Source: Pseudomonadota bacterium (GTDB lineage Bacteria; Myxococcota; Bradymonadia; UBA4248). Taken from it: a DNA stretch of 6,422 bases. Location of the stretch: contig JAGBXG010000352.1 of the NCBI GenBank assembly GCA_017629415.1, positions 1 through 6,422 on the forward strand, written 5' to 3'. Positions 1 through 6,422 of the stretch are shown one piece after another. Below the pieces are notes generated by a model. The model saw only the letters and a program-made list of their open reading frames with translations, was not told the DNA's origin and did no database searches. The position numbers and the translations under genes were made by a program. Within the stretch, counting starts at the first letter, position 1; each line of letters begins with the position of its first letter.

Positions 1-471
1 ACATTTATTGGTTCCAAGCTCAAAGGCATTCCTGGCGGAGTCTGCGCCACTTTTGGACTTATTTTTCCAAGTCTTCTCATTATTGTATTGATTGCAGCAG
101 GCCTCAGTCAGTTTCAGGACAACGCCACGGTTGCCCATGCGTTTAACGGTATCCGTGCCTGCGTTTGCGTATTGATTATCAATGCCGTCATCAAATTGGC
201 CAAATCCAGTCTGGTAGACGTTCCTTCTGTTTGTATTTTTCTGACAGTTTTTGGACTTTCGGCTTTTTTGGGGCTTTCACCTGCTTTACTTGTAGGAATT
301 TGCGGCCTGGTAGGTTTTATCGTCCACAAGATCAAACATTCTGAGAGTTCGTCTATTCAGTTAAACGGTTCTCATACGGCAGAGATTTCGACTGAATCCG
401 AAGGCAGCGGTTCTGTTGCCAGCAACTCTGAATCATCGTCCACCTCAAAAGACCAGGAAAGTGCCTCATGA
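1..471 (+). CDS. Chromate transporter (CHR family) half-protein, N-terminal partner, 5' truncated
   Basis: The reading frame is open from base 1 to TGA at 469-471, giving 156 visible residues; the true start lies upstream of the window. The opening residues, TFIGSKLKGIPGG followed by a hydrophobic helix with FPS, match the middle of the CHR (ChrA, PF02417) domain, and AFNGIRACV matches the family's conserved 'A(F/Y)xGxRP' segment, although the usual Pro is absent. Three or four further membrane segments follow, up to about visible residue 110. The last 43 residues (114-156) are a hydrophilic tail with 17 Ser, unusual for this short family. CHR proteins are inner-membrane anion transporters, classically exporting chromate; many family members have no tested substrate. 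The gene overlaps the next by 4 bp, so the two halves are probably made together and pair in the membrane. An internal TTG at 88 is not a credible start, because homology continues upstream of it. Confidence 0.88.
   Translation, partial: TFIGSKLKGIPGGVCATFGLIFPSLLIIVLIAAGLSQFQDNATVAHAFNGIRACVCVLIINAVIKLAKSSLVDVPSVCIFLTVFGLSAFLGLSPALLVGICGLVGFIVHKIKHSESSSIQLNGSHTAEISTESEGSGSVASNSESSSTSKDQESAS
455..458 (+). promoter_or_regulatory. Ribosome binding site of the second transporter half
   Basis: AGGA lies 9 nt before the ATG at 468, inside the end of the upstream gene. It supports the ATG at 468 as the start, together with the ATGA stop/start overlap. It is the only convincing Shine-Dalgarno sequence in front of a gene start in this window. 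Confidence 0.6.
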
Positions 472-1040
472 TATGGCTTCATCTTTACTTTGAGTTTTTT
501 GTCATTGGTCTTCTGGCGGTAGGGGGCGGTCTGGCGACGATACCGTTTTTGACGGATTTATCTGAACGCACGGGATGGTTTACCTTAGATCAACTGACAA
601 ATATGATTGCTGTCAGTGAATCCACCCCTGGGCCTCTTGGTGTCAATATGGCCAGTTATGTTGGTTATGAAGTCGGCGGAATTATAGGTGCGGTCTCAGC
701 CACTATTGGTCTTATCACTCCATGTATTATCATTATACTTATCGTGGCGGCATGTTTAAAAAAATTCCGTAACAGCCAAACTGTTGTCGGCATTTTTTAT
801 GGTCTGCGTCCGGCCTCAACGGGCCTGATTGCCGCCGCTGGCTGGGCTGTTGTCTGTCTTTCTCTTATCCAAATCACGAGAGAAGACAGTTTTTTACCCT
901 CCGCCGTGCATTTTCAATGGCCGTGCATTGTTCTGGCTGCAGCCATTGGTTTTCTGACCCATTTTAAGAAAACCAAGCGCATTCATCCTGTGGCATGGAT
1001 TGCGATTTCAGCCATCATAGGTATTATTTTTCAGTTTTAA
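468..1040 (+). CDS. Chromate transporter (CHR family) half-protein, second partner
   Basis: A complete 190-aa protein, the usual size of a short-chain CHR protein (one domain, about half of a full ChrA). Family signatures are clear: an N-terminal helix with a GGGLATIPF segment (residues 19-27), the loop ESTPGPLGVNMASYVGY (51-67), which matches the conserved PGPxxxNxAxxVGY block, and GLRPASTGLI (112-121). Roughly six hydrophobic segments cover residues 5-27, 62-95, 105-133, 151-164 and 173-190, so this is an inner-membrane protein. Its start overlaps the previous gene's stop (ATGA), which points to translational coupling and a two-subunit transporter. The likely role is anion (chromate) export driven by the membrane potential. 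That substrate is family knowledge; nothing in the sequence proves it, and no chrB-type regulator is visible. Confidence 0.9.
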   Translation: MIWLHLYFEFFVIGLLAVGGGLATIPFLTDLSERTGWFTLDQLTNMIAVSESTPGPLGVNMASYVGYEVGGIIGAVSATIGLITPCIIIILIVAACLKKFRNSQTVVGIFYGLRPASTGLIAAAGWAVVCLSLIQITREDSFLPSAVHFQWPCIVLAAAIGFLTHFKKTKRIHPVAWIAISAIIGIIFQF

Positions 1041-1081: not shown

Positions 1082-1262
1082 CCACGCTTAGGGGGTGCAT
1101 CCCTAGGGTTCTGCAATAGATTTAACGTTTATGGCAGGTTAAACAGGTACTGACAACTGACGTTTCGGGGAGAAATAGGGCCCTGATTCCCATTCGGCGT
1201 TCCTGCCCCCCATTTCATAAGCGATATATGTTTTAGCGTATGGCGTGTTTCCGAAAGGGATG

Positions 1263-1296
1263 GCGCGGCGTATGACGCTTGTCGTCATAGCCGCGC
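1263..1296. repeat. Bulged-G palindrome, unit A1
   Basis: The left arm is GCGCGGC (1263-1269), then an unpaired G (1270), then TATGACG (1271-1277). The loop is 1278-1282. The right arm is CGTCATA (1283-1289) plus GCCGCGC (1290-1296). That is a 14-bp perfect stem broken only by the bulged G. It is the same design as the units at 1301, 6353 and 6392, so this is a dispersed repeat family resembling REP elements, not an isolated hairpin. Confidence 0.75.
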
Positions 1297-1300
1297 ACGC

Positions 1301-1334
1301 CGGGCGTATGGAGGCCGGAGGCCGACATAGCCCG
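1301..1334. repeat. Bulged-G palindrome, unit A2 (diverged copy)
   Basis: CGGGC (1301-1305), a bulged G (1306) and TATG (1307-1310) pair with CATA (1326-1329) and GCCCG (1330-1334). Inside, GGCC (1313-1316) pairs with GGCC (1320-1323) around a 3-nt loop, with GA facing GA in between. The sequence differs from the other copies but keeps the fold, including the bulge. It lies 4 bp after unit A1 and 50 bp before the channel gene. Confidence 0.65.
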
Positions 1335-1384
1335 CGCCCTTCCCAAAGCAAACCAGCTCACGATTCCATCTCATCATTATTTTT

Positions 1385-2302
1385 ATGTTTAAAAAATTCT
1401 TTATCGACAGCAATATTATTTTACTGCTTATCACGCTGAACAGCATTCTTATTTTTGCCCAAGAGTGCGGTGTCAATTATCTGTGGGTATCCATTATTGA
1501 TCTTATTTTAACGGCGATATTTCTGAGCGAAATCATTTATAAGAATGTGCATTATGGTTTTAAAAGTTTTTGGCGCCAGCCGATTAACACGATGGATGCT
1601 TTGCTCGTGATTTTGAGTATTCCTTCTGTTATTAATTTTATATATCCTATTGATATTATTGATCTTTCCTTCCTGCTTGCGCTTCGTGTGCTTCGCGTTT
1701 TACGAATTTTCCGTATTATTCGGCTGTTTCCGGATTTTGAAGTCATTGTCCGAAATTTTATCCTGGCCCTGAAGCAGTCATCCGCATTTTTACTCAGTTT
1801 TTTCATTTTGATTATTATTTTTGCGCTGATTGACTGCAGCATGTTCCGCGAAATTGCGCCTGAATATTTTTCGACGCCTTTTGAAGCCATTTATTCCACG
1901 TTCCGGATGTTCAGCGTGGAAGGCTGGTATGAAATTCCTGAAGCCGTTGTTTCCGGTCTTGAAGGGGAATTTTGGCGTCATGTGATTCGTATGTACTTCT
2001 GCATTCAGCTTCTTTTTGGCGGTATTGTGGGGATGTCACTGATTAATGCGATTTTTGTCGATGCGATGGTCAGTGACAATAACGACGATCTCAAACGCGA
2101 TGTTGCTGAAATCAAGGCCGTGGTGGAGCAAAGAAATGATGCGGTTCGCAAAGAACTGGAAGACATCAAATCGTTAATTGCGGCACACGACAGTCATCTG
2201 AGCAAAGACGAACCGTCTGAATCTGTGGATATTGCTCAAGAGCTGTCTCAAATTCGTGCATTGCTTCAAAAGCTGAGCAATGAGCAACCAAAGGATCAAT
2301 AA
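1385..2302 (+). CDS. Voltage-gated cation channel, single-domain six-TM (bacterial Nav/Cav-like)
   Basis: A 305-aa inner-membrane ion channel subunit of the Ion_trans family (PF00520), expected to work as a homotetramer. S1 is about residues 10-27, S2 32-51 (Glu49), S3 69-86 (Asp71), S4 95-114, S5 125-150, pore helix 165-177 and S6 200-224. S4 has five Arg at exact three-residue spacing (101, 104, 107, 110, 113), a full voltage sensor. The selectivity filter is S177-V-E-G-W-Y-E183; Glu179 and Trp181 match the TLESW core of NaChBac/NavAb. S6 keeps an Asn (221) near its inner end. Residues 232-300 are charged and heptad-like, consistent with the cytoplasmic coiled coil that holds tetramers. The start is the only ATG/GTG/TTG after an in-frame stop at 1328-1330; no Shine-Dalgarno is visible before it. 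Whether it passes Na+ or Ca2+ is open; filter Gly180 and Glu183 lean towards Ca2+. Confidence 0.9.
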   Translation: MFKKFFIDSNIILLLITLNSILIFAQECGVNYLWVSIIDLILTAIFLSEIIYKNVHYGFKSFWRQPINTMDALLVILSIPSVINFIYPIDIIDLSFLLALRVLRVLRIFRIIRLFPDFEVIVRNFILALKQSSAFLLSFFILIIIFALIDCSMFREIAPEYFSTPFEAIYSTFRMFSVEGWYEIPEAVVSGLEGEFWRHVIRMYFCIQLLFGGIVGMSLINAIFVDAMVSDNNDDLKRDVAEIKAVVEQRNDAVRKELEDIKSLIAAHDSHLSKDEPSESVDIAQELSQIRALLQKLSNEQPKDQ

Positions 2303-2314
2303 ATTGTGCAGGCG

Positions 2315-2356
2315 ACTCAAGTCATCGTCCCACTTACTCAAGTCATCGTCCCACTT
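2315..2356. repeat. Perfect 21-bp tandem duplication
   Basis: Two identical 21-bp units lie head to tail at 2315-2335 and 2336-2356, each beginning ACTCAAGTC and ending CCCACTT. At the junction, ACTT and AAGT form a short inverted repeat around a 4-nt spacer. The repeat sits between the channel stop and the kinase promoter, about 50-90 bp upstream of the -10. It may be a pair of protein-binding sites or simply a recent slippage duplication. Confidence 0.8.
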
Positions 2357-2402
2357 ATTTTAAATTTTCATCAAATTTTACCTAAGCAAGTATGAGCGAA
2401 CA

Positions 2403-2411
2403 TGGTATAAT
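2403..2411 (+). promoter_or_regulatory. Extended -10 promoter for the kinase gene
   Basis: TGG followed by TATAAT (2406-2411) is a consensus sigma70 -10 with the TGn extension. No good -35 lies 16-18 bp upstream, which extended -10 promoters can tolerate. Transcription would start near 2418, giving a leader of about 65 nt before the ATG at 2484. This suggests the kinase is transcribed separately from the channel, though read-through is possible. Confidence 0.55.
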
Positions 2412-2430
2412 GGAGGTTTGTTTTAGATTT

Positions 2431-2448
2431 CGGCTTATGCCGTTTTTT
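2431..2448 (+). terminator. Mini hairpin plus T6 in the kinase leader, possible attenuator
   Basis: CGGC (2431-2434), a TTAT loop and GCCG (2439-2442) are followed at once by six T. The stem is only 4 bp, so it is weak as a terminator. It lies downstream of the predicted start point at about 2418 and upstream of the kinase start, where it could cause pausing or premature stopping, or it could be the terminator of transcripts from the channel gene. Confidence 0.35.
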
Positions 2449-2483
2449 ATATTTTATTTTCTTTAAATTTGTCCATTTTAGCC

Positions 2484-5400
2484 ATGACCGACGTTGCAAA
2501 ACCAGAACTTCCAAATCCAGGTGACCGACTTGCCGACCGATATACGATTATTCAGCGTTGCAGTCTTGGCGGTTTTGGTGCCGTTTATCGCGGCATTCAG
2601 GACAATTTAGGCCGTGACATTGCGCTGAAAGTTCTTCTTCCTGATGTTGTGTCGAACAATGCTGACTATGTGGAGCAATTTCGTCAGGAAGCACTTTTAA
2701 CGAGTCAGCTTCGTCATCCGAATACGATTACCATATTTGACTATGGTCAGACCGATACAGGTTTGCTTTTTCTCGTCATGGAATGGCTGGACGGCAAGAC
2801 CTTGACCGAAGTGCTTCGTGAGGAAGGCGCGCTGAGTTATGATCGTTGTCTGCATATCAGCAATCAGATGCTCAAGTCGTTAAGTGAAGCTCATGAGCGC
2901 GGTATGGTTCATCGCGATCTTAAGCCTTCGAATTTGATGCTTTGCATGCAGTATGGCGAGTCAGATTTTGTCAAGGTTTTGGATTTTGGTTTGGTGAAAA
3001 ATCTGTCTGAGGAGACGCTGAGCATTCGCGGCAAGGCCGTAGAGGCACCTAAATTTACGGCCAAACGTCGCGCCCCTGGCACACCGCATTATATGGCTCC
3101 TGAGCAGGCCATGGGTAAAGGCACGACGACATCTGCCGATATTTATGCATTTGGTCTTATTCTTCATGAGATGCTGACCGGCAAACGAGCGGTAGATGGC
3201 GCAGATAAGATGGAAGTGCTGCTCAAACAGGTTCGTCAGCCGGTGCCTCCGCTTCCTGATGAGTTTAAAGATACATTTTTAGGCAAAGTTGTTTCACGTT
3301 GTGTTGAGAAAGATCCGCTCAAACGTCCTCAAAATGCCTCAGCTTTACTTCGTGATTATCAGCTGAACGAAGAAACGCGCGGCATTGAGGTTAACAATGC
3401 AGATTTTGAGGCAGCTGCACGTTGGAAAACCCTCGCGGAACAACGGAGCGCCCATTCCGAAGTCAGCAGTTCTCTCAAAGATTTGTTTGTCGGTCGTACG
3501 ACTGAGCTTGAAGAATTCCGCGCGATTGTTCAAAAAGGCATGACCGAGGGCAACGGTATGGCTTTGACGGTCACGGGGCAAACAGGTATTGGCAAAACGA
3601 CCTTGATCAATAAGTTTGCGGACATTTTCCTCGAACTGACCCATGGCACACGCATAAATGCCGCTTATTTGCCGCACAGTTATCTTTCTTATTCGGCGAT
3701 TCGAACGGCGCTTAAAAGCTTCCTGAATGTCCAGTCGGATGACGCGAGTGATGCCCAACTTGAAATCAAACGAGCGTTGGCCAAATACGACATTCATGAT
3801 GCTTATCTTGTTACGTTCATGACTCAGTTTATCGTGGGCAAATATGGTCAGGCTGGGGATGAACGCGAACAGACTGAATTGCGTCTGGAAGAATTTTTTG
3901 ATCTTGTTTCTCGGATGGTGCCCGTCATTTTCATCGTTGAAAATGTCCACTGGGCTGACACAGACAGTCTGAATTTGTTGTGGAAATCTGCACTTTCTGC
4001 CATCAGCAAACGCAGGCCGTTTTTCTTGGTGGCAACATTCCGCCATCAGGCACTTGCCCACAACCGCGAACTTCAGATGCTTCTGGAACGTCTCAACCGT
4101 CTGGATCATGTTTATTATCGCGAAATGCAGCTTGCCTGGCTGAGCAAAAAAGAATGCCATACGATTATTGAGAATGCCGTCAAGATGCAGCGTCCGATGG
4201 CTAATCAATGTATGGCTTTGTCGAAAGGCAATCCACTTTTCCTCAATCTCGTGCTTCGTTATATTCTTGATGAGAAGATGGCCGCCGGTACTGACGATGC
4301 TCAGAAACTCGTCATTCCCAATTCGATTGAAAAGATTTCTCTGAAGCGCATTGATCAGATTGTCCGCAAATACAATCAGCCCGAATACCGCGAAATTTTG
4401 CGCCGCGCGGCACTGATGGGCGAAACATTTTCTTTATCTGTTGTAGAGGCCCTGCTTCGCCGGGACGGTCAATATAATTTGTTGGACTTTACCAGCCGTG
4501 CGCTTGAGGTCTGGCGTCGCGAAGGGATTTTGCGTCGTCAATGGGATGCTGACATGTCTTTTGAATTTGTCCATCCTCATGTTGTTGATTTCTTTATTGC
4601 CGACTCTTCTCCCGAACTTCATCTGAATGTTGCGCGAACCAAAGAAGCCCTGAGTGCCACCGATGTCTTTATTGCCCTTGAAGACATTGCCAAACACTTC
4701 AAACTTGGCGGCGACAAAGCGAGCGCCCTTCGCTATTTTGGTCTTGCGGCCAATGCAGCTTCGCAGACGTCTGATCTTATCAAAGCGCGCAAACTTCTCG
4801 AAGAAATGATTCCGCTTTTTGGTCCCAATGAATCCGTTGAGACGATGAAAAATGTCTATTTCCAGCTTGGTGAATTGACATTGCGTTTATCCGAATACGG
4901 TCCTTCCAAAGATTATTTTGCGAAAACGATATCTTTGTCGCAGTCTGTCCAGGATCACCAGATGGCAGGCCTGGCTTATTGCGGTATTGCTGAGCTTGCA
5001 TTGGCACAAAATCAACTGGAAGAAGCCAGTTCGAATTATAATCGTGCCAAGCAGGCTTTACCTGATGAAGATCCCAATGTTCAGAGCAAACTATTGCTCG
5101 GGATGGGCAAACTTTCCAAACTTAAAGCCGACTGGCAGGCCGCCCTGGCGTGTTTCCAAAAAGCCTATGATTACAGTTCGAATTGTGCCGAATTCAATCT
5201 CATGGGGAATGCCCTTTACGAACTCGGTGTTATTTATTTTGCTTTAGGTGCATCGAGGCAGGCTCACCAGTGCTTTATTGCGGCCCAGAAAAACTATCAA
5301 ACGGTCAACAATACTGCCGATGAAGCCGATATTTTGCTTGCGCTTTCCCAAACATACGCGATTTTCATGCGTGCTGACGATGCGCGCGTGTCGAACGAAT

Positions 5401-6281
5401 CTGCGATTGAAATTTACCAGAAACTTGGCGATCAGCTTGGATTTGCGCGCGCATTGGCTCGCATGGGTGCCCTCAATATCCACCAGCTGGTTTATGATGA
5501 GGCGCAGAAATTTGTGCTTCGGAGTATGCCGCTTTTCAAAGATTTCCATGATGCCGTTGGCAATGCATTCTGTCAGCTTCAGCTGGCCATGATAGAACTT
5601 GCGCACGGTCAGTTTGAAAATGCGACAACCTTGGCCAATCAGGCTTTGGTCGAATTCCAAAAAACAGATGATTTTGGCGCACAAGTCACATTGCTGACAA
5701 TGCTGGGCACGATCAGCATGTATCAAAACAAGCTGGAAGCTGCTCAAAACCACTTCAATCAGGCCGAAATGCTGCTTGATGTTCATCAGTCGAATGCCGG
5801 CCGTCCCGAGCTTTACTGTGAATGCGGTATGTTGTGCGAATGCCGTGGCGACTTTGCAGGCGCCGAAAAATATTACAAACATGCGCAAGATATGGCACAG
5901 CAATGCGAACATCTCGAACAGACTTATCTGGCAAGACTGAGCATCATTAAGGTTAATCTCTATTTTGCGCCCGGCCGCTGGTATTACGAGGAATTGCTTA
6001 AAATTGCGAACGAAGCCAGAACTTATGGCCTCAAAACAGCCCAGCTTCAGGCGCTTTTGCTCATTGTCTGGTTTGAAGGTGTTTACGGCGAACAGCGCAC
6101 TTGGGAGAACCTCATGACTGAACTGACGCGTTTCGTTCAGAGCACCGGCCTGCCCGTTCACGGTATGCTTCGCATTTTCGAATTCAAAGCTGAAGTGCTT
6201 CGCTATGTTTCGCCCGAAATTTCGACAGCCCTTCATCGCAGTGCCGGCTGGATCCGCCAGTATCTGAGCCAGGGCAGATAA
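2484..6281 (+). CDS. Ser/Thr protein kinase fused to AAA_16-type ATPase and TPR repeats
   Basis: A 1265-aa soluble signalling protein; no signal peptide or membrane segment is seen. Residues 20-290 are a Hanks-type kinase: GGFGAVY loop (29-35), Lys49, Glu69, HRDLKPSN (143-150), DFG (167-169), APE (205-207), Asp219 and Arg281. All catalytic residues are present, so it should phosphorylate Ser/Thr. The first Gly of the Gly-rich loop is Ser27, and the activation segment is long with a basic KFTAKRR (190-196). Residues 334-700 are a COG3899-like ATPase: Walker A GQTGIGKT (365-372), Walker B region IFIVENVHWAD (482-492), ATFR (517-520) and GNPLFL (582-587). Residues 785-1145 hold about nine TPR-like helix pairs at 38-40 residue spacing, likely for partner binding. 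ATG 2484 is preferred over TTG 2469 because it is a stronger start codon and leaves the usual short lead into the kinase domain; neither has a Shine-Dalgarno. The substrate is unknown; the neighbouring channel is a candidate partner by position only. Confidence 0.93.
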   Translation: MTDVAKPELPNPGDRLADRYTIIQRCSLGGFGAVYRGIQDNLGRDIALKVLLPDVVSNNADYVEQFRQEALLTSQLRHPNTITIFDYGQTDTGLLFLVMEWLDGKTLTEVLREEGALSYDRCLHISNQMLKSLSEAHERGMVHRDLKPSNLMLCMQYGESDFVKVLDFGLVKNLSEETLSIRGKAVEAPKFTAKRRAPGTPHYMAPEQAMGKGTTTSADIYAFGLILHEMLTGKRAVDGADKMEVLLKQVRQPVPPLPDEFKDTFLGKVVSRCVEKDPLKRPQNASALLRDYQLNEETRGIEVNNADFEAAARWKTLAEQRSAHSEVSSSLKDLFVGRTTELEEFRAIVQKGMTEGNGMALTVTGQTGIGKTTLINKFADIFLELTHGTRINAAYLPHSYLSYSAIRTALKSFLNVQSDDASDAQLEIKRALAKYDIHDAYLVTFMTQFIVGKYGQAGDEREQTELRLEEFFDLVSRMVPVIFIVENVHWADTDSLNLLWKSALSAISKRRPFFLVATFRHQALAHNRELQMLLERLNRLDHVYYREMQLAWLSKKECHTIIENAVKMQRPMANQCMALSKGNPLFLNLVLRYILDEKMAAGTDDAQKLVIPNSIEKISLKRIDQIVRKYNQPEYREILRRAALMGETFSLSVVEALLRRDGQYNLLDFTSRALEVWRREGILRRQWDADMSFEFVHPHVVDFFIADSSPELHLNVARTKEALSATDVFIALEDIAKHFKLGGDKASALRYFGLAANAASQTSDLIKARKLLEEMIPLFGPNESVETMKNVYFQLGELTLRLSEYGPSKDYFAKTISLSQSVQDHQMAGLAYCGIAELALAQNQLEEASSNYNRAKQALPDEDPNVQSKLLLGMGKLSKLKADWQAALACFQKAYDYSSNCAEFNLMGNALYELGVIYFALGASRQAHQCFIAAQKNYQTVNNTADEADILLALSQTYAIFMRADDARVSNESAIEIYQKLGDQLGFARALARMGALNIHQLVYDEAQKFVLRSMPLFKDFHDAVGNAFCQLQLAMIELAHGQFENATTLANQALVEFQKTDDFGAQVTLLTMLGTISMYQNKLEAAQNHFNQAEMLLDVHQSNAGRPELYCECGMLCECRGDFAGAEKYYKHAQDMAQQCEHLEQTYLARLSIIKVNLYFAPGRWYYEELLKIANEARTYGLKTAQLQALLLIVWFEGVYGEQRTWENLMTELTRFVQSTGLPVHGMLRIFEFKAEVLRYVSPEISTALHRSAGWIRQYLSQGR

Positions 6282-6301
6282 CGTTTTTGGGGCATATTCT
6301 G

Positions 6302-6319
6302 ACATCATGAGATGTTTTT
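6302..6319 (+). terminator. Weak terminator-like hairpin after the kinase gene
   Basis: ACATC (6302-6306), an ATGA loop and GATGT (6311-6315) form a 5-bp stem running into five T (6315-6319), 20 nt after the stop codon. The stem is AT-rich and short, so termination would be weak alone; the strong hairpin right after it may help. Confidence 0.4.
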
Positions 6320-6320
6320 G

Positions 6321-6341
6321 GCAGGGGGCATCGCCCCCTGC
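6321..6341. repeat. Strong G/C hairpin downstream of the kinase gene
   Basis: GCAGGGGGC and GCCCCCTGC form a perfect 9-bp stem around a 3-nt ATC loop. No T-run follows on either strand, so it is not a standard terminator. Its place, just before the palindrome array, parallels the G/C hairpins found between the transporter stop and the first array, and it may block 3' exonuclease decay. Confidence 0.7.
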
Positions 6342-6352
6342 GGCGCTATTGG

Positions 6353-6384
6353 CGCGGCGTATGTCGCAAAGCGACATAGCCGCG
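6353..6384. repeat. Bulged-G palindrome, unit B1
   Basis: CGCGGC (6353-6358), a bulged G (6359) and TATGTCGC (6360-6367) pair with GCGACATA (6371-6378) and GCCGCG (6379-6384) around an AAA loop: 14 bp in total. Its outer arm equals that of unit A1, more than 5 kb away. Confidence 0.8.
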
Positions 6385-6391
6385 TCTGCAA

Positions 6392-6422
6392 GGCGTATGT
6401 CGCATAGCGACATAGCCGCGCG
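6392..6422. repeat. Bulged-G palindrome, unit B2 (array continues past the window)
   Basis: GGC (6392-6394), a bulged G (6395) and TATGTCGC (6396-6403) pair with GCGACATA (6407-6414) and GCC (6415-6417) around an ATA loop. The inner 8-bp arms are identical to unit B1. The outer left arm is shorter because the sequence before it (CTGCAA) does not pair with the trailing GCGCG. The window ends here, so further units may follow. Confidence 0.75.

What the first reader, a model, noticed from the sequence alone, without database searches (positions are those of the whole stretch)
1263..6422. Palindromic repeat family with a conserved bulged G and paired base changes
Four units (1263-1296, 1301-1334, 6353-6384, 6392-6422) share the design outer stem ending GGC, a single unpaired G, TATG..., a short loop, ...CATA, GCC. 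Where copies differ, the arms change together: TATGACG/CGTCATA in A1 against TATGTCGC/GCGACATA in B1 and B2, and GGGC/GCCC in A2 against CGGC/GCCG in A1 and B1. The bulge is on the same arm in all four. Keeping a fold while the sequence drifts suggests a selected DNA or RNA structure, such as a REP-like element moved by a REP-associated transposase, a nuclease-resistant mRNA 3' end, or a protein-binding hairpin. I do not recognise it as a named family.
Basis: partly seen in the sequence, partly recalled or inferred. Interest (0 to 1): 0.72.

Follow-up and report, generated by a model that had tools for sequence, protein, structure and literature searches.

The report
Strand-specific bulged-G hairpin repeat family
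A family of gut bacteria carries roughly a hundred or more short DNA hairpins per genome whose sequences differ almost everywhere yet keep the same bulged shape on one particular strand, a new variant of the REP-type palindromic repeats with an unknown partner protein.

Summary
The window has four GGCGTATG...CATAGCC hairpins (0 in 200 shuffles). The same core occurs 9-145 times in each of 8 of 8 genomes of the related family (gut Bradymonadales-like) and at chance level in 369 other genomes sampled from the phylum. The conserved part is C, bulged G, TAT / ATA, G. Outer stem, inner stem and tip length vary but stay paired, within genomes and at sites orthologous between congeners. Copies are mostly intergenic (255 of 266), near gene 3' ends, in head-to-tail arrays of 1-4, in both orientations. 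G.T and purine-purine mismatches are tolerated on the GTAT strand rather than its complement, also where flanking genes run the other way. This suggests a strand-specific single-stranded (DNA-like) hairpin, as for REP/TnpA_REP. But GTAG lies near only about 6% of copies and a RAYT passes its cut-off in 3 of 8 genomes, so it is not a standard REP family. Unexplained: neighbouring arrays alternate in orientation over kilobases in all four genomes tested. New variant of a known kind; partner protein unknown.

The parts
1262..1297 (+). Unit A1: outer stem GCGCGGC/GCCGCGC, bulged G, TATGACG/CGTCATA
   Evidence: covariance model R1 33.1 bits
1298..1336 (+). Unit A2: outer stem CGGGC/GCCCG, bulged G, TATG/CATA, tandem G.A step, GGCC/GGCC tip
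   Evidence: R1 14.6 bits
6351..6386 (+). Unit B1: 8-position outer stem, bulged G, TATGTCGC/GCGACATA
   Evidence: R1 34.7 bits
6387..6422 (+). Unit B2: short outer stem (GGC/GCC), bulged G, TATGTCGC/GCGACATA; reaches the window end
   Evidence: R1 18.8 bits
6322..6340 (.). Neighbouring G/C palindrome CAGGGGGCATCGCCCCCTG, no bulged G; companion hairpin, not counted as a member
   Evidence: 10.4 and 12.7 bits with R1
2484..6281 (+). Ser/Thr kinase-AAA-TPR protein whose 3' end is 69 nt before unit B1; used as the orthologous anchor
468..1040 (+). Chromate transporter protein, the gene upstream of A1/A2
1385..2302 (+). Ion channel (Ion_trans), the gene downstream of A1/A2

Best explanation
This is a lineage-specific family of REP-like palindromic elements that work as strand-specific single-stranded hairpins. 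Shown: the GTAT strand can fold into outer stem - bulged G - TAT/ATA clamp - variable tip; C-G(bulge)-TAT / ATA-G is nearly all that is fixed in sequence, and both stems are kept by pairing. Shown: the units are mostly intergenic, mostly near gene 3' ends, in arrays that differ between congeners by tandem units. Inferred: because the tolerated mismatches are those of the GTAT strand whichever way the flanking genes run, the recognised object is that single strand, most simply ssDNA exposed at replication, bound at the bulge and clamp by a still unidentified ssDNA-processing protein. Inferred: where an array lies antisense behind a gene and carries a T-run, it doubles as an intrinsic terminator.
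For: Copy number: 70, 63, 72, 145, 114, 136, 71 and 9 exact-core copies in 8 of 8 family genomes; reversed-pattern control 2 in all. Covariance model: at least 109-196 matches per family genome, 0 in the 6 non-family genomes tested with it. Bulge and clamp: G+TAT 101 against 1 shuffled, next type 22, in regions chosen around known copies. Pairing at positions not used for selection: outer pairs 1-5 paired in 210, 194, 177, 186, 120 of 263 against re-dealt means 128, 105, 121, 122, 93; inner pairs 1-4 also above all 500 re-dealings. Covariation score 0.323 against 0.084, 0 of 500 shuffles. Between G004 and G005, 12 of 18 orthologous gaps with a hairpin have one in both, some with paired changes. 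Strand: G.T 22 against A.C 4; 8:0 where genes run with the GTAT strand, 11:2 where against; odds ratio 10 against local composition, purine-purine over pyrimidine-pyrimidine 3.1. Orientation mixed: antisense:sense in tandem context 35:23, 52:43, 38:19.
Against: No partner protein found. No copying event with clear ends was shown. A-runs on the array's 5' side are commoner where a gene ends toward its 3' side (0.41 and 0.35 against 0.21 and 0.21) and antisense placement is mildly preferred, both of which speak for an RNA role. The G.T/A.C counts are small (26 cells; 3:2 in the remaining gene contexts), an earlier cut gave inner pairs 3:22 the other way, and the asymmetry would also fit a transcript of the GTAT strand. 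The bulge is not absolute: at two orthologous sites (L346/L383, L325/L366) a G004 copy has another bulge base or a changed clamp. Outer pairs 6-8 and inner pair 5 are not paired above chance; the count of pairs with a change on both sides is reached by 62 of 500 shuffles.
Confidence: 0.5

Rival explanations
1. RNA element: the hairpins act in mRNA 3' regions as terminators, nuclease barriers or protein-binding sites, and the DNA arrangement is secondary.
For: Location near gene 3' ends: a gene ending toward the array's 3' side lies at median 47 nt. T-run behind the last hairpin downstream of the kinase in G005. 5' A-run 0.41 and 0.35 against 0.21 by context. At synteny breaks with an array in both genomes, the array keeps its 3' side to the retained gene in 14 comparisons and its 5' side in 4.
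Against: Both orientations are common in tandem context, and the tolerated mismatches are those of the GTAT strand also where the mRNA would be the other strand (11:2). 14 of 115, 23 of 185 and 11 of 132 arrays lie between divergent genes.
Confidence: 0.27
2. A true REP family mobilised by a RAYT (TnpA_REP) encoded in the genome.
For: Palindromic, high copy, intergenic at 3' ends, irregular stem and strand preference as in E. coli REP (passages of PMC8266576). Y1 genes in 6 of 8 genomes. 8 of the 14 Y1 loci hold a loosely defined GTAT hairpin within about 1.5 kb, one of them A/T-rich and probably chance (no matched control was run). GTAG within 20 nt of the core on the 5' side in 15 of 260 copies against 2 of 260 further out.
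Against: No GTAG near 245 of 260 copies on the 5' side, and CGTC is not enriched (26 against 19 in the control stretch). Two genomes with many copies lack any Y1 match. NF047646 over cut-off in 3 of 8. The 8 Y1 genes whose flanks were read carry other palindromes next to them.
Confidence: 0.1
3. No recognition at all: hairpin-templated mutation (quasi-palindrome correction) keeps the arms complementary.
For: Tips change fast and stay paired. Tandem copies are alike within each species at one locus (L333/L362).
Against: Such correction should erase the bulged G and the G.A and G.T mismatches. Instead bulge and TAT are the most conserved part, and mismatches are biased by type and strand.
Confidence: 0.06
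4. Integron-like attC sites recognised by an IntI-type recombinase.
For: Structure-recognised, strand-specific hairpins with an extrahelical base and variable tips are what attC sites look like (recalled).
Against: TIGR02249 over its cut-off in 0 of 8 genomes. In the arrays seen, tandem units lie tens of nucleotides apart without genes between.
Confidence: 0.03

Closest known systems
GTAG- and CGTC-tagged REPs (PMC3733652; abstract, sections 5, 14 and 15 read, other passages seen)
   Same: Small palindromes in high copy; most families have subfamilies with alternative complementary stem residues, and loops vary; mostly between unidirectional and convergent genes near 3' ends; dimers or groups. 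So covarying stems as such are known.
   Different: No GTAG/CGTC tag in most copies; the tag-like sequence is an internal bulged G plus TAT/ATA clamp. Both stems vary far more freely. [quoted passage not shown] No RAYT link shown.
E. coli REP (y, z1, z2)/BIME with TnpA_REP (PMC8266576, passages seen)
   Same: A mid-stem irregularity is needed and contacted; one strand is bound.
   Different: E. coli uses an AA-GC mismatch and GTAG; here a single bulged G on the 5' arm and CGTAT/ATAG.
Untagged REP-like families (M. tuberculosis, D. radiodurans, Bordetellae, Brucellae, Cyanobacteria; named in a passage of PMC3733652)
   Same: No terminal tag; function open.
   Different: Other lineages; their sequences were not compared here.
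IS200/IS605 end hairpins and integron attC (recalled, plus PMC8266576 passages)
   Same: ssDNA hairpins read by shape with an extrahelical base.
   Different: No transposase ends, cassettes or IntI over cut-off found.

Membership tests
REP (tagged, RAYT-associated) | Small palindrome in high, mostly intergenic copy | tested here: met
   11 of 266 exact-core copies inside a called gene
REP (tagged, RAYT-associated) | GTAG or CGTC tetranucleotide at the foot of the hairpin | tested here: not met
   GTAG within 20 nt 5' of the core in 15 of 260, 3' in 13 of 260, control stretch 2 of 260; CGTC 26 and 12 against 19. A GTAG-preceded subfamily exists in G004/G005
REP (tagged, RAYT-associated) | RAYT gene in the genome flanked by the same repeat | tested here: not met
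   NF047646 over cut-off 3 of 8; Y1 6 of 8; flanks of 8 of 14 Y1 matches read, other palindromes there; genome completeness is not given
REP (tagged, RAYT-associated) | Strand-specific ssDNA binding | not testable with these tools
   Only indirect: strand-asymmetric mismatches
Integron attC | IntI integrase | tested here: not met
   0 of 8 over cut-off; weaker matches in 7 of 8, as in all 14 controls
Integron attC | Gene cassettes between sites | tested here: not met
   tandem units tens of nt apart in the printed flanks
Known Rfam RNA family | Match at gathering score | tested here: not met
   0 matches in the window; relatives not scanned
Intrinsic terminator | GC hairpin followed by T-run in the gene's sense | tested here: inconclusive
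   Met for a part of antisense-placed arrays; T-runs on the array's 3' side are rare (0.01-0.02); none of the window's four units is in the terminator scan

The most novel reading that the evidence does not exclude
The arrays are boundaries of chromosomal blocks: strand-specific hairpin sites that tend to face inward around gene blocks, alternate in orientation along the chromosome over kilobases, and mark where rearrangement joins change. This would be a structure-read recombination or block-boundary system without a counterpart known to me.
Probability: 0.08. Interest if true: 0.9.

Novelty: new variant of a known kind. Interest (0 to 1): 0.6.

Why it matters
If the reading is right, this is a clear natural experiment on what an ssDNA hairpin-reading system needs: many copies per genome keep about five bases on one arm and four on the other and let nearly everything else drift in pairs. 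It gives a handle (model R1, core CGTAT...ATAG) for finding the partner protein and for testing whether REP-like elements can persist without a RAYT. The kilobase-scale alternation of orientation, if confirmed in closed genomes, would be a kind of chromosomal order that no model known to me predicts.

Tried and rejected
RAYT mobilisation: tested by Y1 Pfam, NCBIfam, hairpins near Y1 loci and reading the flanks of 8 of 14 Y1 matches; not supported. Integron attC: no IntI over cut-off. Recent inverted copying as the cause of alternation: neighbours share an identical GTAT..ATA string in 2 of 107, 3 of 65 and 2 of 49 pairs against 1.5% of random pairs, no clear excess. Inversion of blocks between inverted arrays: among the 19 G004/G005 locus pairs printed I saw no block inverted relative to its neighbour, by eye. 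Alternation as a by-product of gene strand: a permutation within local gene contexts does not reproduce it. A gene shared by array-flanked intervals as the mobiliser: 46 genes flanked on both sides; I looked only at their first 60 residues and at similarities among them, and recognised no transposase. The exact-core-only subset shows no alternation (19 same, 16 opposite); I read this as the effect of skipping intermediate arrays, but it is a result against. My first gene caller missed genes in the window; its replacement finds them, and placement counts here come from the replacement. The contig-end result comes mostly from one genome and may be an assembly effect.

Full report
What is in the window. 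Four units of the form outer stem - GGC - bulged G - TATG - tip - CATA - GCC lie at 1262-1297, 1298-1336, 6351-6386 and 6387-6422, all on +. The core pattern is absent from 200 shuffles. Unit B2 has a weak outer stem and reaches the window end. A2 has a tandem G.A/A.G step in the inner helix. The genes around are two chromate-transporter proteins (the first cut by the window start), an ion channel and a 1265-aa Ser/Thr kinase-AAA-TPR protein. No Rfam family matches the window at gathering score.

Where it comes from. No whole genome is held for the window. Among the kinase's relatives, P0025 is named Bradymonadales bacterium and P0029 Myxococcota bacterium by their sources. A genome scan found L001 (goat omasum MAG RGIG2907, 83% kinase identity) and L002 (cattle colon MAG RGIG464, 73%), both titled 'Proteobacteria bacterium'. 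Their genomes, G001 and G002, opened the family to search.

Copy number and range. The exact core occurs 70, 63, 72, 145, 114, 136, 71 and 9 times in G001-G008, the 8 genomes held of that family; the reversed-pattern control gives 2 in total, both in G004. Of 377 genomes drawn from the phylum, which include those 8, 23 have a match. The 15 outside the family have 1-2 each, 16 in all by my count of the table; the reversed control gives about 30 there, counted by eye. A covariance model (R1, 51 sequences from G001, G003, G004 and G005) finds 109-196 matches per family genome at E 0.01 and none in six other genomes of the phylum. Only 150 first-look candidates per genome were scored, so these are lower bounds. 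In the order, 9 genomes are held: the 8 plus G128, which has no match.

What is conserved. A scan of 0.53 Mb of G001 for hairpins with a 5-bp outer stem, a one-base bulge and a 3-bp clamp gives 101 for bulge G with TAT against 1 in shuffled sequence; the next type has 22. Those regions were chosen around exact-core copies, so the number is enriched, though the scan itself assumed no motif. In 51 members chosen without the GGC...GCC filter, C-G-TAT and ATA-G are the invariant columns; bulge, TAT and ATA were part of the selection there, the adjoining C-G pair was not. Exceptions to that pair exist, such as CCGGT-G-TAT in L242.

Covariation. In 263 distinct exact-core copies from four genomes and the window, pairs not used for selection are kept: outer pairs 1-5 paired in 210, 194, 177, 186 and 120 of 263 (re-dealt means 128, 105, 121, 122, 93), inner pairs 1-4 in 234 of 259, 167 of 183, 117 of 128 and 55 of 86. 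Outer pairs 6-8 and inner pair 5 are not above chance. On 33 copies of equal length the covariation score is 0.323 against 0.084 shuffled (0 of 500) and at most 0.065 with slid partners; all 8 non-fixed pairs show changes on both sides, a count that 62 of 500 shuffles also reach. Between G004 and G005 (kinase DNA 86.7% identical), 67 orthologous adjacent gene pairs were found; 12 gaps have a hairpin in both genomes, 6 in one only, 49 in neither. Paired exchanges are seen in place, for example CCGCGTATCGCC..GGGCGATAGCGG against GCGCGTATCGCC..GGGCGATAGCGC. Not all fits: at L346/L383 one G004 hairpin has an A bulge and TGT/ACA clamp, and at L325/L366 the G004 copy has CAT against AAA in the clamp. 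Copy number changes by tandem units, and at L333/L362 the 2 and 3 tandem copies are alike within each species but differ between them. So a part of the arrays is old and evolves in place.

Subfamilies. Tips of 4-26 nt occur, the bounds set by the pattern. Two internal-loop types recur: a tandem G.A step (as in window unit A2) and a CGCrCAG...GAGCA loop.

Placement. With the improved gene caller, which recovers all four window genes, 11 of 266 exact-core copies lie inside a called gene; loosely defined arrays overlap called genes in 9 of 115, 22 of 185 and 14 of 132 cases in G001, G004 and G005. In tandem context antisense:sense is 35:23, 52:43 and 38:19; convergent gaps, the smallest class in bases, hold 26, 37 and 22 arrays, divergent gaps 14, 23 and 11. 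A gene ending toward the array's 3' side lies at median 47 nt, toward its 5' side at 79.5 nt. Downstream of the orthologous kinase, arrays are antisense in G003, G004 and G005, with a T-run behind the last hairpin in G005 and, by eye, behind a related undetected hairpin in G003. They are sense and further away in G002 and sense in the window. None was detected close behind the kinase in G001, G006, G007 or G008, two of which (G006, G008) run out of contig 238 and 317 nt after the stop.

Which strand folds. In hairpins with a single interrupted outer pair and the helix continuing beyond it, G.T outnumbers A.C 22 to 4: 8:0 where flanking genes run with the GTAT strand, 11:2 where against, 3:2 elsewhere. 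A.G, G.A and G.G are 109 against 13 for C.T, T.C and C.C. Against unpaired flank positions, which carry the local composition, the odds ratios are 10.1 (p 2e-8) for G.T over A.C and 3.1 (p 2e-5) for purine-purine over pyrimidine-pyrimidine (668 hairpins). An earlier, smaller cut gave outer 9:1 but inner 3:22; the inner excess of A.C I ascribe to the C.A step of one subfamily, without a separate test. The simplest reading is that the GTAT strand itself is the folded, selected species in either gene context. That fits ssDNA read by a strand-specific protein and argues against the flanking gene's mRNA as the main target. It does not exclude transcripts made from the GTAT strand.

Not a standard REP. 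TnpA_REP systems use GTAG and, in E. coli, a mid-stem irregularity, and bind one strand (passages of PMC8266576). Here GTAG lies within 20 nt 5' of the core in 15 of 260 copies (control stretch 2 of 260) and CGTC is not enriched. PF01797 is present in 6 of 8 genomes and NF047646 is over cut-off in 3 of 8. The 8 Y1 genes whose flanks I read (of 14 matches) are bordered by other palindromes such as GAACCCC...GGGGTTC. Eight of the 14 Y1 loci do hold a loosely defined GTAT hairpin within about 1.5 kb, for which no matched control was run. PMC3733652 (abstract, sections 5, 14, 15 and passages) says that most REP families have subfamilies with complementary stem changes and expects further untagged REP-like families; this is best placed there. 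Searches for a prior description in this lineage (listings, three of them empty) showed none; that covers only the held open-access library.

Unexplained order. Neighbouring arrays more than 1 kb apart are oppositely oriented 148 times and the same 41 times in G001, G004 and G005 (each genome separately 31:10, 74:18, 43:13); at the second neighbour 65 are the same and 37 opposite. Permuting orientations within classes of local gene context gives 81.8 same (sd 6.3, minimum 58 of 2000) against 39 of 167 observed. A fresh sample from G003 gives 28:8 (p 0.0012). Within one gap, opposite pairs are nearly always - then +, 26 against 3, with 8 same. Against it: using exact-core copies only, neighbours are 19 same and 16 opposite. 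Arrays are commoner at synteny breaks: present in either genome at 84 of 158 broken and 53 of 234 conserved junctions. At breaks with an array in both genomes, each comparison counted once, the array keeps its 3' side to the retained gene in 14 and its 5' side in 4, with 3 mixed and 2 double; conserved junctions give 11, 9, 2 and 2. Counting all breaks with an array, in both directions, the split is only 58 in to 42 out, and 40:19 at gene 3' ends against 18:23 at 5' ends. Near contig ends (150 nt) hairpins face inward 21 to 3, nearly all in G005. I have no mechanism that is shown for this; selection against direct repeats that could delete the block between them is one idea.

Verdict. I put most weight on a strand-specific hairpin element of REP-like kind with an unidentified reader protein, with a terminator role taken on by part of the copies.

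Noticed in passing
L306 (G004 C16), L304 (G003 C245), L302 (G008 C189): RAYT-like Y1 domains over the NF047646 cut-off; in L306 the frame carries a tandem GYACVSPAKDxARGA-type peptide repeat upstream of the Y1 part.
   Followed up: partly
L294, L295, L296, L297, L298, L300, L301, L303: IS200-like Y1 transposase genes bordered by palindromes of other kinds (GAACCCC..GGGGTTC, GCACCCTGAAAGGGTGC, CGGCTTCCAGCCG); the neighbour of the one in L300 looks like a restriction specificity subunit (recalled).
   Followed up: partly
window 2315-2356: Perfect 21-bp direct repeat ACTCAAGTCATCGTCCCACTT, two copies, between the ion channel and the kinase.
   Followed up: no
L383, L398, L399 (G004), L321 (G005): Composite element GGGGGTAGCGGCGTAT..ATAGCCGCGCAGGGGGAG-CTTCCCCC, similar at several sites; present in G004 and not in the aligned G005 gap at two of them (L346/L383, L435/L399): possibly a recently moving subfamily, and it carries GTAG.
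   Followed up: partly
L312 (G006): Downstream of the kinase, a different tandem repeat CCTCACCCCCGGCCCCTCTCC..GGGGAGAGGGG.
   Followed up: no
L332/L407: A stretch of more than 110 nt including the array is identical between G005 and G004, although reciprocal best gene pairs have a median DNA identity of about 81%.
   Followed up: no
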